Part shown: positions 1,480 to 47,249 of the stretch, one piece after another | Position numbering within the stretch: the stretch's first letter is position 1 | How the letters are laid out: every line of letters starts with the position of its first letter | Assembly: GCA_028287505.1 (NCBI GenBank) | Contig: JAQBPN010000031.1 | Span: 1 to 51,294 of the forward strand | Length of the DNA: 51,294 nt | DNA from: Fibrobacterota bacterium | Lineage (GTDB): Bacteria; Fibrobacterota; Fibrobacteria; UBA11236 | Direction of reading: 5' to 3' | Translations under genes and position numbers: made by a program | Notes under the pieces: model-generated | The model's database searches: none | What the model was told of the DNA's origin: nothing | What the model saw: the letters and a program-made list of their open reading frames with translations, nothing else

Positions 1480-1579
1480 CGTCGGGCGTCGGGCGTTAAG
1501 AAAAAACCGAAACCGAAGAAAAATTCAGGAATCTCCCGGTTTTTCTTAACGCCCGACGCCCGTCGCCCGACGCCCGACG
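1480..1579. repeat. Long imperfect inverted repeat (hairpin) between the SBP and dUTPase genes
   Basis: A left arm at 1480-1509 is almost perfectly complementary to 1537-1565, with one extra base in an A-run and one mismatch, around a 27-base loop. The arms are built from repeats of GTCGGGC / GCCCGAC, and an additional copy of GCCCGACGCCCGACG continues to 1579. The structure lies about 110 bases after the SBP stop and 80 before the dUTPase start. It could act as a terminator or mRNA stabiliser, or be a REP/MITE-like dispersed element. There is no T-run directly after the stem, which speaks against a classical intrinsic terminator. Confidence 0.75.
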
Positions 1580-11000: not shown

Positions 11001-11435
11001 ATGCGCAACCTAAAGTTCCTCCATTTCCCCGCGGCCCTCCCGGTATTCGCGGCAATCACGGTAATGGCCGCCGCCTTTCTGGCCGGATGCGCCGGCACGC
11101 GCACCGTGGCCTCCCCCGCCGCCGCGGAGAAAATCGCCGTGGACCTGGCCAACGACAAATGCCAGCACGAATACGGGAAACGTCCCTTCAAGACCGGACA
11201 GTTCCCGGCCACGCTCTCGGGCGACAGATGGCTATGGGGTTGGCTGGATGCCCGCGGCGGCCAGGGTTATACCGCCCAGGTTTCCTTCCATGCGGACCAA
11301 TCCCAACCCCAGGTGGCGGTGAATTTCGGCGCGGATGCCCAAGTGGATATGGAAGAGCCGGATGCGCCGTCCATGAACGGGACTCCGGATCCCGGCGCGC
11401 TCTCGCGCCAGCCGGAGCCCCAAGAGGCGGATTAG
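11001..11435 (+). CDS. Small lipoprotein, unknown
   Basis: A 144-residue predicted lipoprotein with a long hydrophobic signal and lipobox FLAGC (Cys30). The mature part has a compact central segment (about 45-110) with KCQHEYGKRPFKTGQFPATL and DRWLWGWLDARGGQGYTAQVSF, which resembles small beta-sheet periplasmic domains, followed by a disordered acidic Pro-rich tail. No known family is recognised. It is monocistronic and converges on the pentapeptide-repeat gene across a structured repeat. Confidence 0.7.
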   Translation: MRNLKFLHFPAALPVFAAITVMAAAFLAGCAGTRTVASPAAAEKIAVDLANDKCQHEYGKRPFKTGQFPATLSGDRWLWGWLDARGGQGYTAQVSFHADQSQPQVAVNFGADAQVDMEEPDAPSMNGTPDPGALSRQPEPQEAD

Positions 11436-11593
11436 TGCCCAGACAGCCCAATTGTGAAACGAAGGCGGCGAGGGATTGGGGTTCAGGGCAAGGCGCCCCG
11501 ACGCAGGAATAGTGGGCCTATTCCAAGGAGGGGCAACGCAGCCCTGGGCCCCAAGACCCGGCGAAAGCGGCTCACAATTGGGCTGTCGGGGCA
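11436..11593. repeat. 158-base palindromic intergenic element between convergent genes
   Basis: The outer arms 11436-11457 and 11572-11593 are 22 bases and complementary with one mismatch (core GACAGCCCAATTGTGA). Inside are further nested complementary blocks: CAGGGC (11484-11489) with GCCCTG (11541-11546), GCCCC (11495-11499) with GGGGC (11530-11534), and a perfect apical stem GGAATAG (11506-11512) / CTATTCC (11518-11524) with a 5-base loop. The whole segment can fold as one long interrupted hairpin. It starts right after a lipoprotein stop and ends shortly before the convergent pentapeptide gene stop, a typical place for REP/MITE-like elements or bidirectional terminators. Confidence 0.8.
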
Positions 11594-11621
11594 CTAGGAG
11601 GAACAGGAGCGGGCGCATGCG

Positions 11622-42467: not shown

Positions 42468-43751
42468 CTAAGGTACCAATCTGGCAAGCCCTTTTTTGCC
42501 GATATCGTTGCGGAATTGGGCACCCGGAAAGCCCACCTTGGCGGCGCCTTCATAGGCGGCCTCGATGGCGTCCTGCAGGGTGGGGCCTTGTCCCACCATT
42601 CCCAGCACGCGTCCTCCCGCGGTCGCCAATTTGCCCTGCATCCGCTTGGTGCCGGCATGGATGGCATGGGAGTTGGAAAGGCTTTGCACCTGTTCCAGTC
42701 CCGAGATGGGGATGCCTGTTTCATAGGGACCGGGATACCCTTTGGAAGCCATTACCACTACCGCGGCCCATTCTTTTGGAGGCGAGACTTTCAACCTATC
42801 AAGCCGGCCTTCCAGGGAAGCCAGGATCAACTCCAGGAGATCTTCCTGCAAAATGGGCAGGACCACCTGGGTTTCCGGATCCCCGAAGCGGCAGTTGTAC
42901 TCGACCACCTTTGGGCCCTTGGACGTGATCATCAAGCCCACGTAGAGGATTCCCTTGTAGGGCGTCCCTTCCCGGCGCATCCCGTCCAGGGTGGGGGTGA
43001 TGATGGTACGCGAGGCCTCTTCCAGCAACTCCTGGGTCATCAGCGGGGCGGGCGCATAGGCCCCCATGCCGCCGGTATTGGGACCCGTATCCCCATCGCC
43101 GATGCGCTTGTGATCCTGGGCCGTGGGCAACAACACGAAGGATTCCCCGTCCGTGAGGGCGAAGACGGAGGCTTCTTCGCCTTCCATGAACTCTTCCATC
43201 ACCACTTCCGATCCCGCCAGGCCGAAGACGGCTTTGGGACCCAACATGGATTGCAGGGCGCTTTCGGCTTCCTGCATGGTCATGCACACCACCGCGCCTT
43301 TGCCGCCCGCCAAGCCGCTGGCCTTGATCACGATGGGGGCGCCCATTTCGCGCAGGTGCGCCCGCGCCGGTTCCAAGGCCCTGAAGGTCTGGTACCCGGC
43401 GGTGGGAATTCCGTGCCGGCCCATGAAATCCTTGGCGAATGCCTTGCTGCCTTCCAAGGCGGCAGCCGCGCGGTCCGGTCCAAAAATCCGCAGGCCGTTG
43501 GCCTCGAACAAATCAACCAATCCGCCCACCAGGGGTTGCTCCGGTCCTACGATGGTAAGGTCCACCTTCTGTACCTGCACCAAGGTCAACAAGCCGCGGA
43601 AATCGTCCGGTGCCACCGAAAAGCAGGAACCCAGTTCTTCCATCCCGGGGTTGCCGGGAGCGAAGATCAGGGTCGGTTTCTTCGGGGACGCGGCTAACTT
43701 GCGGCCGATTGCATGCTCTCTGCCACCGTTTCCAATGATCAATACTTTCAT
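42468..43751 (-). CDS. purD: Phosphoribosylamine-glycine ligase (GAR synthetase)
   Basis: Second step of de novo purine synthesis: ATP-dependent joining of 5-phosphoribosylamine and glycine. The 427-residue product has the N-terminal MKVLIIGNGGREHAIG, the middle VGPEQPLVGGLVD, the ATP-grasp segments PIVIKASGLAGGKGAVVC and DHKRIGDGDTGPNTGGMGAY, and VEYNCRFGDPETQVVLP, all family signatures. The start at 43751 is fixed by MKVLIIGNGGREH; a longer frame to 43859 is spurious. TATTTTCA (43757-43764, minus) sits immediately upstream, so the transcript may have a very short leader. No other pur gene is adjacent. Confidence 0.96.
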   Translation of the reverse strand: MKVLIIGNGGREHAIGRKLAASPKKPTLIFAPGNPGMEELGSCFSVAPDDFRGLLTLVQVQKVDLTIVGPEQPLVGGLVDLFEANGLRIFGPDRAAAALEGSKAFAKDFMGRHGIPTAGYQTFRALEPARAHLREMGAPIVIKASGLAGGKGAVVCMTMQEAESALQSMLGPKAVFGLAGSEVVMEEFMEGEEASVFALTDGESFVLLPTAQDHKRIGDGDTGPNTGGMGAYAPAPLMTQELLEEASRTIITPTLDGMRREGTPYKGILYVGLMITSKGPKVVEYNCRFGDPETQVVLPILQEDLLELILASLEGRLDRLKVSPPKEWAAVVVMASKGYPGPYETGIPISGLEQVQSLSNSHAIHAGTKRMQGKLATAGGRVLGMVGQGPTLQDAIEAAYEGAAKVGFPGAQFRNDIGKKGLARLVP

Positions 43752-43764: not shown

Positions 43765-43934
43765 GTAATCCCTCCTTTTGGGGTGGCGCTCTGTGTGTCC
43801 CCCGGTCCGGGCGCGCGGCGGGGGGTACGGGCCCTACGGCTACAGTGGATTCGCGGCAATTCTGTGGGTCAAATGCCTCCCTGAAGGCCAAAGTGGTGTG
43901 TCACGGGCCCTCTCTCGCGATGGCGGGTTTAGAG

Positions 43935-44156
43935 GTGGGGTGGGGGCATCCCTGACTGGCGGGGTCGCTACGCCCAATGGCTAATCCCTTGCATTGAGTC
44001 AACCGGACCTCCTTGGGTCCAGACAGTGATTCTGCCGCAATCACTCGCGATGGACGCCGCTCGCAAGCGGGGTCTCGCAGGCGCTCGTTCTTGCCCCCGC
44101 GTCAGTCCTGCCAAAGGGCTCCGCTCCCATGCCAGTCAGGGATGCCCCCACCCCAC
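43935..44156. repeat. 222-base structured element: 26-bp perfect inverted repeat enclosing three hairpins
   Basis: The arms 43935-43960 and 44131-44156 are perfectly complementary over 26 bases. The 170 bases between them contain three small perfect stems: 44005-44009 with 44016-44020, 44025-44031 with 44039-44045 (AGTGATT/AATCACT) and 44057-44061 with 44066-44070. The element therefore folds like a multibranched RNA or a non-autonomous transposable element. It sits in the gene-free 43752-44233 stretch between purD and a 57-residue protein gene. No target-site duplication or transposase is obvious. The remaining sequence on either side is GC-rich without recognisable genes. Confidence 0.75.
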
Positions 44157-44233
44157 GGACTTCCCGTCGGGGCGGTGGGGTCTCGGGGAGAGGGAGTCGA
44201 AGGTTCGCTGGAGGAGCGGTTTGCGGGATGGGT

Positions 44234-44407
44234 TTAGGGCTTTTTTTCTTCTGGCTGGCTTTCGCCGGAGTCCTTCATGGTGTCCATCATTTGTTCGACG
44301 ATGGAGTTCATGAGGCCGCTGAAATCGGAGGTGCCGAATTTTTCTTTCATGACTTTTTCGAGCCTGGTTTCGGCTTGGGGATCCTTTTCGGGATTTTCCT
44401 TTTCCAT
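44234..44407 (-). CDS. Small 57-residue charged protein, unknown
   Basis: A short frame with ribosome-binding site AAAGGA about 6 bases before its ATG (44407). The product begins MEKENPEKDPQAETRLEKVM, has a hydrophobic-faced helix FSGLMNSIVEQMMDTMKD and ends in a charged ESQPEEKKP tail. The heptad-like spacing suggests a small amphipathic or coiled-coil protein. No family is recognised. It is 237 bases after rseP on the same strand and could be the end of that operon or independent; the intervening bases contain only small GC-rich palindromes. Confidence 0.6.
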   Translation of the reverse strand: MEKENPEKDPQAETRLEKVMKEKFGTSDFSGLMNSIVEQMMDTMKDSGESQPEEKKP

Positions 44408-44644
44408 TGCGGTTCCTTTTTTGGGGCTGAACTTGTGTGTCGTGGGTTCGATGGGGTTTTGAATTCGTGGGTCTCTAAAGGCGCGGCGGCTGCCTGCGGC
44501 AGCGCGCTTCAGTTGTAGCGGTCACGTGGGTGGCTCACAGCCCCCCGGGCTGTTCGCGGGATCGTTGAAGTACTGCGGTATAGGAGAGGAGTAGGATGCC
44601 GTCGATTGGTTGACGGTTCTCCAGCCATGGTCATTAAGAACGGA

Positions 44645-45976
44645 TCAATTCAAGAACCAGGGGATGCGGATGATGTCTTGGAAGGTGACGAAGAGGAAGA
44701 GGAGGAGGAAGAAGCTGAATCCTACTCTGTTGATGATCCCCTGGGTATTGAGGCTTAGGGGCTTCCTGCGGATGGCTTCCAGGAGCAGGAACATGACTAC
44801 GCCGCCGTCGGTGATGGCCAGGGGGAGGATGTTGAGGACGGCCAGGTTGGTGTTGAGGAGGGCCATGAACTCGAGGAACTTCTGCAGGCTTTGGCGGAGG
44901 CTGCCGGCGATCATCTGGACGATGCCGATGGGGCCGGAGAGGGCTTTGAGTTTGATCTTGCCGGTGGCGATGCCGGTGAGGGTGCGCAGGACCATGGTGC
45001 CGGACTCGTAGTTCTTTTCGAGGCTTTTCTTGAAGGCTTCGCCGGCGTTGCGTTTGACGAGGACGGTGGGGACGTTGAGGCCGGGATAGATGCCGACGAT
45101 GAAACGCTTGGTGCCGTCGTCCATGATGGGGGTGACCTGGATTTCCTGTTTCACGTTGTCGCGGACCAGGGCGATGGTGATGGGCGCGCCTTTGGAGCCG
45201 TTCACCATTTCGATGAGGGCGGTGGCGGAGGGGATGCGGATGCTGTCCACCGAGAGGATCTTGTCCCCTTCCTTGAGGCCGGCTTTTTCGGCGGGCTTGC
45301 CGGGGATGACCTTGGCCACCACCACTTCGGCTTCGCCGGTGATGCCGGAAAAGGCGATGCCGAACTTGGGATTGATTTCCGATTGCAGGCTCAGGGTGGT
45401 GTCTTTGCCGGCGCGGCGGATGGTGAGGGGGACCGGGTGTCCGCCTTCCATGGCCACGTCCTGCATGAACTGTTCCCAGCCGGCCTGGGTCTTGCCGTTC
45501 AGCTTGAGCACTTCGTCGCCGGGGCGGATGCCGGCGATGGCGCCCGCGGAGCCTTCTTCCACTTCGCCCACGACCATGGAGTCTTTGGCCTCCTGGACGC
45601 CGGAGAGATAAAGGCCGAAAAGGATCATGAATGCGAAAATGAGGTTGGCGGCGGGGCCGGCCACGGCTATCCCCAGGCGGGCGGGGATGGATTTGTTGCG
45701 GAACTCGTCCGAGTTGCCGTAGCCGCCGTCGTCGGGATTCTCGCCGGCCATGGCCACGTAGCCGCCGAAGGGAATGGCCGAGAGGGCGTATTCCGTATCG
45801 CCGCGCTTGAACTTGATCAATTTCTTGCCGAAGCCGATGGAAAAGGTATGCACCTTGACGCCCACCCACTTGGCCACGGCGAAATGGCCGAGCTCATGGA
45901 TGAACACCATCATGCTCAGGCCGATGAGGCCCACGGGGACCTGATAGATAAGGGACCAGTAACCTGTGAGATGCAT
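44645..45976 (-). CDS. rseP: Site-2 metalloprotease RseP
   Basis: An intramembrane zinc protease that cuts anti-sigma factors and signal peptides. The 443-residue protein has four membrane segments. Its first segment holds VFIHELGHF (His27, Glu28, His31), followed by GVKVHTFSIGFGKKL and FGGYVAMAGE. Two PDZ domains occupy the middle (about 115-300, EEGSAGAIAGIRPGDEVLKL and IPGKPAEKAGLKEGDKILSV). The third catalytic region is NLAVLNILPLAITDGG, where the usual LDG is TDG but the zinc Asp is kept. I start at ATG 45976 (MHLTGYW, with GGAAAGGA upstream), not at the longer frame to 46270, which runs into dxr. It follows dxr by 31 bases. Confidence 0.92.
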   Translation of the reverse strand: MHLTGYWSLIYQVPVGLIGLSMMVFIHELGHFAVAKWVGVKVHTFSIGFGKKLIKFKRGDTEYALSAIPFGGYVAMAGENPDDGGYGNSDEFRNKSIPARLGIAVAGPAANLIFAFMILFGLYLSGVQEAKDSMVVGEVEEGSAGAIAGIRPGDEVLKLNGKTQAGWEQFMQDVAMEGGHPVPLTIRRAGKDTTLSLQSEINPKFGIAFSGITGEAEVVVAKVIPGKPAEKAGLKEGDKILSVDSIRIPSATALIEMVNGSKGAPITIALVRDNVKQEIQVTPIMDDGTKRFIVGIYPGLNVPTVLVKRNAGEAFKKSLEKNYESGTMVLRTLTGIATGKIKLKALSGPIGIVQMIAGSLRQSLQKFLEFMALLNTNLAVLNILPLAITDGGVVMFLLLEAIRRKPLSLNTQGIINRVGFSFFLLLFLFVTFQDIIRIPWFLN

Positions 45977-46007
45977 GGAAAAAATCCTTTCCGGAAGGGG
46001 CGGGCCC

Positions 46008-47249
46008 CTACCGTTCCGCCGCTTTGGCCGTCGATTGCCTGGCGGGCGCGGCGGGGACGTCCGTCCCGTCGCTTGCTTGTGTGTCCATGATGCGGAGGGC
46101 GGCTTTGCGCGCCCATGCGTCCGCTTCGATAACGTGATCCAGGGTGGGATGCTGGCGGATTTCCGCCGCGTCCAGCACCGAGGCCAGGATGCGCGGGATG
46201 TCCGTGAAACCGATGGCTCCCGCTTCCCGGGGGGCGCGGTCTTCCAGGAAGCGCGCGACCACGGCTTCATTGGCCGCGTTGAGGATGGCCGGCGCGGTGC
46301 CGCCCAGGTTTCCGGCGCGATAGGCCAGGCCCAGACAGGGAAACTTATCGATATCGGGCGGGAAGAATTCCAGCTTGGCGATTTTCGCCATGTCCAGGCG
46401 ATCCACGTTGAGGGGCCAGCGCTCGGGATAGGAGAGGGCGTACTGGATGGGCAATTGCATATCCGGGCATCCGAGTTGCGCCATCAGGGAGCCGTCGCGG
46501 AACTGCACGAAGGAGTGGACGATGGAAGTGGGGTGGATGACGACCTTGATGTTCGCGAAGTCCACGCCGAAGAGGTAATGGGCCTCGATCACTTCCAGGC
46601 CCTTGTTCATCAGGGTGGCGGAGTCGATGGTGATCTTTTCCCCCATCACCCAGGTGGGATGCTTGAGGGCATCGGCCTTGCGGATGGCGCCGAATGCGGC
46701 CTTGGGGCGTTCCCGGAAGGGTCCGCCCGAGGCGGTCAATTCGATGTGTTCGACTTCGGAAGCGGGGCGACCGGCCAGGCATTGGAAGATGGCGGAATGT
46801 TCGGAGTCGATGGGGATGAGCCGGCTGGAGGGATTGCGGCGCAGGGCGGCGTTGATGAGTTCGCCCGCCATCACCATGGTTTCCTTATTGGCCAGGCCCA
46901 CATGCTTGCCATGGGAGATGGCTTCCAGGGTGGGGCGGCAGCCGATGGCGCCCACCAGGCCGTTCAGGACATAATCCACTTCCGGGAGGGAGACCATTTC
47001 CAGGAGGCCTTCCATGCCTTCGAGAACCCGGGCCTGGGTGTGCTTGCGGAGCTCTGCGGCCGCGGATGCGTCCCAAATGCACACCTTTTCGACTTTGAAC
47101 TCGTTGATGATGGGGAGGAGTTTTTCCCACTGGCGCCCGGCCGCCACTCCCACCAGGCGGAACTTGTCCGGGTGCTGGCGGAAAACCTTGAGGGAGGCCA
47201 ATCCAATGGAGCCGGTGGCGCCCAGCAAGGCGATGTTTTTCTTTCTCAT
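46008..47249 (-). CDS. dxr: 1-deoxy-D-xylulose 5-phosphate reductoisomerase
   Basis: Second enzyme of the MEP isoprenoid pathway, reducing and rearranging DXP to MEP with NADPH. The 413-residue product shows NIALLGATGSIGLASLKV at the N-terminus, ANKETMVMAGELI, the substrate segment IPIDSEHSAIFQCL, ELTASGGPFRE, ITIDSATLMNKGLEVIEAHY, VIHPTSIVHSFVQFRDGS and LNAANEAVVARFL. The C-terminal 25 residues (TQASDGTDVPAAPARQSTAK) are an extra disordered tail beyond the normal family end. A TATATTGA box (47256-47263, minus) lies 7 bases upstream of ATG. The dxr-rseP order is widespread. Confidence 0.96.
   Translation of the reverse strand: MRKKNIALLGATGSIGLASLKVFRQHPDKFRLVGVAAGRQWEKLLPIINEFKVEKVCIWDASAAAELRKHTQARVLEGMEGLLEMVSLPEVDYVLNGLVGAIGCRPTLEAISHGKHVGLANKETMVMAGELINAALRRNPSSRLIPIDSEHSAIFQCLAGRPASEVEHIELTASGGPFRERPKAAFGAIRKADALKHPTWVMGEKITIDSATLMNKGLEVIEAHYLFGVDFANIKVVIHPTSIVHSFVQFRDGSLMAQLGCPDMQLPIQYALSYPERWPLNVDRLDMAKIAKLEFFPPDIDKFPCLGLAYRAGNLGGTAPAILNAANEAVVARFLEDRAPREAGAIGFTDIPRILASVLDAAEIRQHPTLDHVIEADAWARKAALRIMDTQASDGTDVPAAPARQSTAKAAER

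What the first reader, a model, noticed from the sequence alone, without database searches (positions are those of the whole stretch)
43935..44156. 26-bp perfect inverted repeat enclosing three hairpins
The arms are perfect and the interior is not random: three short perfect stems occur in a row. It might be a structured RNA of unknown class, a MITE, or a stable cruciform regulating the purD-side spacer.
Basis: seen in the sequence. Interest (0 to 1): 0.6.

Follow-up and report, generated by a model that had tools for sequence, protein, structure and literature searches.

The report
Gene-end hairpin elements with covarying arms
The inverted repeat is one copy of a previously undescribed family of about 230-base hairpin elements, found only in one genus of Fibrobacterota, that mostly sit just behind the stop codons of ordinary genes and keep two long arms perfectly matched although the arm sequence differs in nearly every copy.

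Summary
In detail: arms 43935-43960 and 44131-44156 are a perfect 26-bp inverted repeat, and three small stems lie inside. The three stems are not conserved (whole stem in 1, 1 and 2 of 26 relatives). The large hairpin is. It belongs to a dispersed family that a core-only covariance model (arms left out) finds in five of six genomes of this genus and in none of 162 other Fibrobacterota genomes. Of 41 copies inspected, 32 carry 18-35 bp arms (97% Watson-Crick), although the arms of different copies are no more alike than shuffled ones. Eighteen of 26 copies not used to build the model that found them show arms at the model ends. A long-range inner helix covaries. In 29 of 41 copies the left arm starts 3-46 bp after a stop codon; 22 of 38 lie between converging genes, against 42 of 294 intergenic regions sampled. 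I found no target-site duplications, RAYT/Y1 transposase, integron R boxes, Rfam match or intrinsic terminator. Best reading: a gene-end hairpin that folds alike in transcripts of either strand, with arms kept matched by template switching. A MITE-like history is nearly as likely. The window copy is atypical: antisense, upstream of purD.

The parts
43935..43960 (+). left arm of the element (26 bp, perfect)
   Evidence: sequence unique in the genome apart from its own right arm, up to 3 mismatches
43961..44130 (+). conserved core of the element
   Evidence: found by core-only covariance model R1 at 135 bits; the window copy was among the 13 training rows
44005..44009 (+). 5' strand of the long-range inner helix (called P4 here)
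   Evidence: covariation: 7 of 8 pairs changed on both sides, score 0.516 vs shuffled mean 0.140
44104..44108 (+). 3' strand of inner helix P4 (weak in this copy, GGAC/GTCC)
44131..44156 (+). right arm of the element
44157..44233 (+). G-rich right flank; one GGGTC here, six on the + strand across 43860-44644
44449..44512 (+). second shared segment (X), also right of the three closest copies
43770..43925 (-). right half of an older element of the same family, orthologous to the full copy upstream of purD in G002; broken at the centre
   Evidence: 72% over 224 bp
42468..43751 (-). purD (phosphoribosylamine-glycine ligase), neighbour
   Evidence: Pfam GARS_N/A/C
44234..44407 (-). 57-aa conserved small ORF, neighbour, function unknown
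   Evidence: alignable in G002 (81% DNA over 89 bp); no Pfam match
44645..46270 (-). rseP-type M50 protease gene, neighbour (reading-frame coordinates)
   Evidence: Pfam Peptidase_M50 and PDZ

Best explanation
The feature is one copy of a genus-specific family of non-coding gene-end hairpin elements (about 220-290 bp: mostly 25-33 bp arms, conserved core, oriented G-rich GGGTC flank). Shown by sequence: the family, matched but sequence-free arms, a covarying inner helix, orientation, and placement right behind stop codons and between converging genes. Inferred: because the arms are an inverted repeat, RNA read from either side folds into the same long GC-rich hairpin, which shields the 3' end of the upstream mRNA and hinders readthrough from the converging gene. 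It would work with Rho or RNA trimming rather than as an intrinsic terminator. Also inferred: arms stay matched because template switching copies one arm onto the other, helped or not by selection. In the window the copy is antisense between a small ORF and purD, so its local role there is less certain.
For: Core-only model finds copies in 5 of 6 species; arms appear at the model ends in 18 of 26 copies not used to build the model that found them. 887 arm pairs: 860 Watson-Crick, while arm-to-arm similarity between copies equals the shuffled level (0.44 vs 0.43). Inner helix covariation 0.516 vs 0.140, 0 of 500 shuffles. Left arm 3-46 bp after a stop codon in 29 of 41 copies, right arm usually 165-1065 bp from a gene. 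22 of 38 copies in convergent gaps vs 42 of 294 in the sample. At shared gene ends the core is conserved in 11 of 12 locus pairs (z 2.0-7.5) while arms and right flanks mostly are not. GGGTC 12.2 per kb in right flanks vs 1.1 overall, strand-specific. Published: inverted repeats are enriched behind stop codons in E. coli (PMC6060812); template switching can maintain hairpins (PMC8794818).
Against: No transcript data. No T-tract behind the arm and no intrinsic-terminator match at the element. Arm mismatches are not enriched in G-U on the + strand (1 G-T, 8 A-C, 18 others), so selection on RNA is not evident. Seven copies, including the window's, have the left arm at a gene's start. Copies are often most similar to another copy in the same genome, which suggests spread or conversion rather than pure vertical retention. 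Position and family do not prove function.
Confidence: 0.45

Rival explanations
1. A non-autonomous mobile element (MITE-like) that is tolerated or targeted just behind stop codons; hairpin arms are needed for its movement and are re-matched by template switching or by the transposition process itself.
For: Multi-copy, patchy among close species (21, 13, 5, 2, 1, 0 matches); rseP-purD gap lacks it in G001, and none follows rseP in G005; some copies closest to a neighbour in the same genome (G4 C100A/B, C99a/c, G0 C24/C25, the three G003 copies); half elements and nested inserts.
Against: No target-site duplication signal (mean 1.59 vs null 1.58); no common terminal sequence; no Y1/RAYT transposase in four of the five element-bearing genomes; the neighbours identified are housekeeping genes; about a dozen gene ends or starts carry a copy in two or more species.
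Confidence: 0.38
2. A DNA-level site: a cruciform or folded single strand bound by a structure-reading protein (recombinase, SMC/MatP-like or hairpin nuclease), without any RNA role.
For: Near-perfect Watson-Crick arms without G-U enrichment; conserved central block; half elements broken at the centre; integron-type integrases present in 4 of 5 element-bearing genomes.
Against: Strong bias to stop codons and converging genes points to transcript ends; no integron R boxes at 32 element ends; no element near the integrase genes apart from one marginal 97-nt match, E 0.057.
Confidence: 0.12
3. Neutral leftover: arms stay matched only through template switching and the core is homogenised by gene conversion; no function.
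For: Template switching is known to re-match stems (PMC8794818); arms are unconstrained in sequence.
Against: Core conserved at shared loci while the adjacent flank is not; oriented placement.
Confidence: 0.05

Closest known systems
ERIC/IRU (enterobacterial repetitive intergenic consensus)
   Same: Intergenic, transcribed with neighbours, orientation-dependent effect on mRNA stability (PMC2229807); long imperfect hairpin and optional internal inserts (general knowledge)
   Different: ERIC is 127 bp with 7-bp terminal repeats, target-site duplications and TA ends (PMC2229807); here arms of about 28 bp, no shared ends, no duplications, stop-codon placement
Correia/NEMIS elements of Neisseria
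   Same: Mostly intergenic, long (24 bp) terminal inverted repeats, 107-155 bp (PMC2229807)
   Different: Correia elements have TA ends and target-site duplication (PMC2229807) and conserved arms (general knowledge); here arms differ in nearly every copy
REP/BIME and REPIN
   Same: Gene-end palindromes, mRNA 3'-end protection, vertical persistence (general knowledge)
   Different: Short conserved palindromes moved by RAYT; no Y1 transposase in G000, G002, G003, G004 or G005
Integron attC sites
   Same: Placed just behind stop codons in sense orientation, structure conserved more than sequence (general knowledge)
   Different: attC ends are conserved R boxes and the apex varies; here ends vary and the interior is conserved; 0 of 32 copies have R boxes
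Paired DNA uptake sequences or bidirectional terminators between converging genes
   Same: Inverted repeat between converging genes that folds on both strands (general knowledge)
   Different: No conserved uptake word in the arms, no T-tract

Membership tests
MITE (bacterial, sensu Delihas, PMC2229807) | terminal inverted repeats | tested here: met
   32 of 41 copies
MITE (bacterial, sensu Delihas, PMC2229807) | target-site duplication | tested here: not met
   observed equals null
MITE (bacterial, sensu Delihas, PMC2229807) | conserved terminal sequence, TA ends, A+T-rich | tested here: not met
   left arms 86% G+C, similarity between copies at shuffled level
MITE (bacterial, sensu Delihas, PMC2229807) | cognate transposase | tested here: inconclusive
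   only Y1_Tnp tested: absent from G000, G002, G003, G004 and G005, present in G001; other transposase families not searched
REPIN/RAYT | Y1 (RAYT) transposase in the genome | tested here: not met
   none in four of the five element-bearing genomes
Integron attC | RYYYAAC / GTTRRRY boxes at the ends | tested here: not met
   0 of 32
Integron attC | integron integrase in the genome | tested here: met
   over cut-off in G000, G001, G002, G004, not in G003 or G005; no element beside it apart from one marginal match
Intrinsic terminator | hairpin followed by a T-tract | tested here: not met
   mean 1.9 T in the first 12 nt after the arm; none at the element
Rfam families | covariance-model match | tested here: not met
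   nothing above gathering score
Gene-end mRNA hairpin / transcription barrier | position just behind stop codons, convergent bias | tested here: met
   the window copy itself is an exception (left arm toward the purD start)
Gene-end mRNA hairpin / transcription barrier | RNA 3' ends or stability effect | not testable with these tools
   no RNA data

The most novel reading that the evidence does not exclude
A new class of gene-end element whose specificity lies in shape rather than sequence: a perfect but sequence-free stem on a conserved core, actively kept perfect by template switching and used in this genus as a two-way transcript-end signal between converging genes.
Probability: 0.25. Interest if true: 0.75.

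Novelty: new variant of a known kind. Interest (0 to 1): 0.52.

Why it matters
Bacterial intergenic repeats are normally defined by a shared sequence. Here the shared things are position, core and the fact that the arms match, while arm sequence drifts freely in 18-35 bp stems. That gives a natural test bed for how long perfect stems are maintained (template switching versus selection) and may reveal how a poorly studied phylum ends transcripts between converging genes.

Tried and rejected
Rfam match (only sub-threshold noise). Plasmid or viral origin: no match. REPIN/RAYT. Integron attC. Intrinsic terminator. Conserved meaning of the three inner hairpins. GGGTC as a general intergenic motif (not general). 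A strand call from G-U versus A-C mismatches: arms lean to the - strand (8:1), inner helix to the + strand (8:4), so undecided. A full-length covariance model with arms was not made because MAFFT does not align the arms in register.

Full report
Observation. The window holds a perfect 26-bp inverted repeat, 43935-43960 and 44131-44156, enclosing 170 nt. In 451 kb of the same genome 10 perfect repeats of at least 17 bp were found and none in three shuffled versions. The three small stems are real but are whole in only 1, 1 and 2 of 26 related copies, so they are not the point.

Organism. The window is contig C100 of a 6.07-Mb genome in 130 contigs. In the window the order on the - strand is rseP, a 57-aa ORF, the element (antisense), half of an older element, purD.

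Family. A DNA search of the own genome and relatives gave full copies at C9 of the own genome and two places in G004. These share the core but not the arms, yet each has its own matched arms. Long perfect repeats of the same span also surrounded several of the partial hits. An alignment of 13 cores without arms gave covariance model R1. R1 found 27 matches in 21 genomes, all in the own genus; in 168 Fibrobacterota genomes of 41 genera again only that genus. A second model from 33 rows gave 21, 13, 5, 2, 1 and 0 matches in G000, G004, G002, G003, G001 and G005. First-look filters limit the number scored, so these are lower bounds.

Arms as an independent test. Arms were left out of the models. 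Of 13 new copies found by R1, 9 have arms of score 16 or more at the model ends (re-measured). Of 13 further copies found only by R2 and not known before, 9 do, including marginal matches with E up to 0.08. Overall 32 of 41 copies have arms of 18-35 bp, 860 of 887 pairs Watson-Crick, and left arms of different copies are as alike as shuffled ones (median 0.44 vs 0.43). Mismatches are 1 G-T, 8 A-C and 18 others. The inner helix (window 44005-44009 with 44104-44108) pairs in 93.5% of cells and has covariation score 0.516 against 0.140 for shuffles and at most 0.098 when slid.

Position. In element orientation the left arm starts 3-46 bp after a stop codon in 29 of 41 copies and within 75 bp of a start codon in 7; the right arm is usually 165-1065 bp from the next gene (for the copy L043:3871-4096 the stop codon was read from the sequence, because the gene caller missed it). 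Of 38 copies with both neighbours called, 22 lie between converging genes, against 42 of 294 intergenic regions in the sampled genome. Neighbours identified by Pfam include secF, Fe/Mn superoxide dismutase, a bacterial sugar transferase, an HDOD protein, rseP and purD. Gene calls are ORF plus codon-position heuristics, so single distances may be off.

Right flank. The first 160 nt beyond the right arm are G-rich (40% G, 23.5% C) and carry GGGTC 12.2 times per kb against about 1.1 in the genome sample, with GACCC at 0.57. This is specific to gaps with elements and oriented. Read from the other strand it is C-rich and G-poor, which resembles a Rho loading tract; that is inference only.

Evolution. 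About a dozen gene ends or starts carry a copy in two or more species. At 12 such pairs the core is above the shuffled level in 11 (z 2.0-7.5), while arms are at random level in most and the right flank in 11. Yet several copies are closest to another copy of the same genome, the rseP-purD gap has no element in G001, none follows rseP in G005, and the orientation there differs between G000/G002 and G003/G004. In the window the element abuts the right half of an older element; G002 also has a half copy broken near the centre. So the family is old and tied to gene ends, but not static.

Mechanism. Two things need explaining: matched arms with free sequence, and position. For the first, template switching between arms is a published mutation route (PMC8794818) and explains double-sided changes without G-U intermediates. 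For the second, the simplest reading is a gene-end structure that works in RNA of both strands, in line with the enrichment of inverted repeats behind stop codons in E. coli (PMC6060812) and the mRNA-stability effect of some ERIC copies (PMC2229807). No T-tract follows, so intrinsic termination is unlikely. A mobile history is almost as likely; the target-site duplication test was negative, and of transposase families only Y1 was tested.

Verdict. The finding stands and is larger than reported: a genus-restricted family of gene-end hairpin elements for which I found no description in the library searched, though the library is not complete. Family and geometry are shown; the function is inferred.

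Noticed in passing
window 11433-11596: Another hairpin repeat with conserved arms (AGTGCCCCGACAGCCCAATTGTGAG), also at L062:10910-11071 and L078:9262-9491.
   Followed up: no
window 1483-1562: Inverted repeat CGGGCGTCGGGCGTTAAGAAAAA; related arms at L078:3073-3275 and a CGTCGGGCG-rich repeat at L081:17378-17584.
   Followed up: no
window 44449-44560: Segment X and a second small palindromic repeat (GGCTCACAGCC..GGCTGTTCGCGG); the latter occurs inside the element at C9 (L044) as a roughly 70-bp insert and near C99 copies.
   Followed up: partly
window 43770-43925: Right half of an older element, broken at the centre; G002 has a second half copy broken near the same place.
   Followed up: partly
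window 44234-44407 (-): 57-aa ORF conserved next to rseP in G000 and G002, no Pfam family.
   Followed up: no
L149-L152 (G000:C53, G002:C17, G004:C13, G001:C17): Integron-type integrases over the curated cut-off in four of six genomes, without recognisable attC sites in the 8-14 kb around them.
   Followed up: partly
L058 between 10219 and 10844: The gap between the two facing elements downstream of secF holds a further imperfect palindrome of about 145-bp arms, 79% alike.
   Followed up: no
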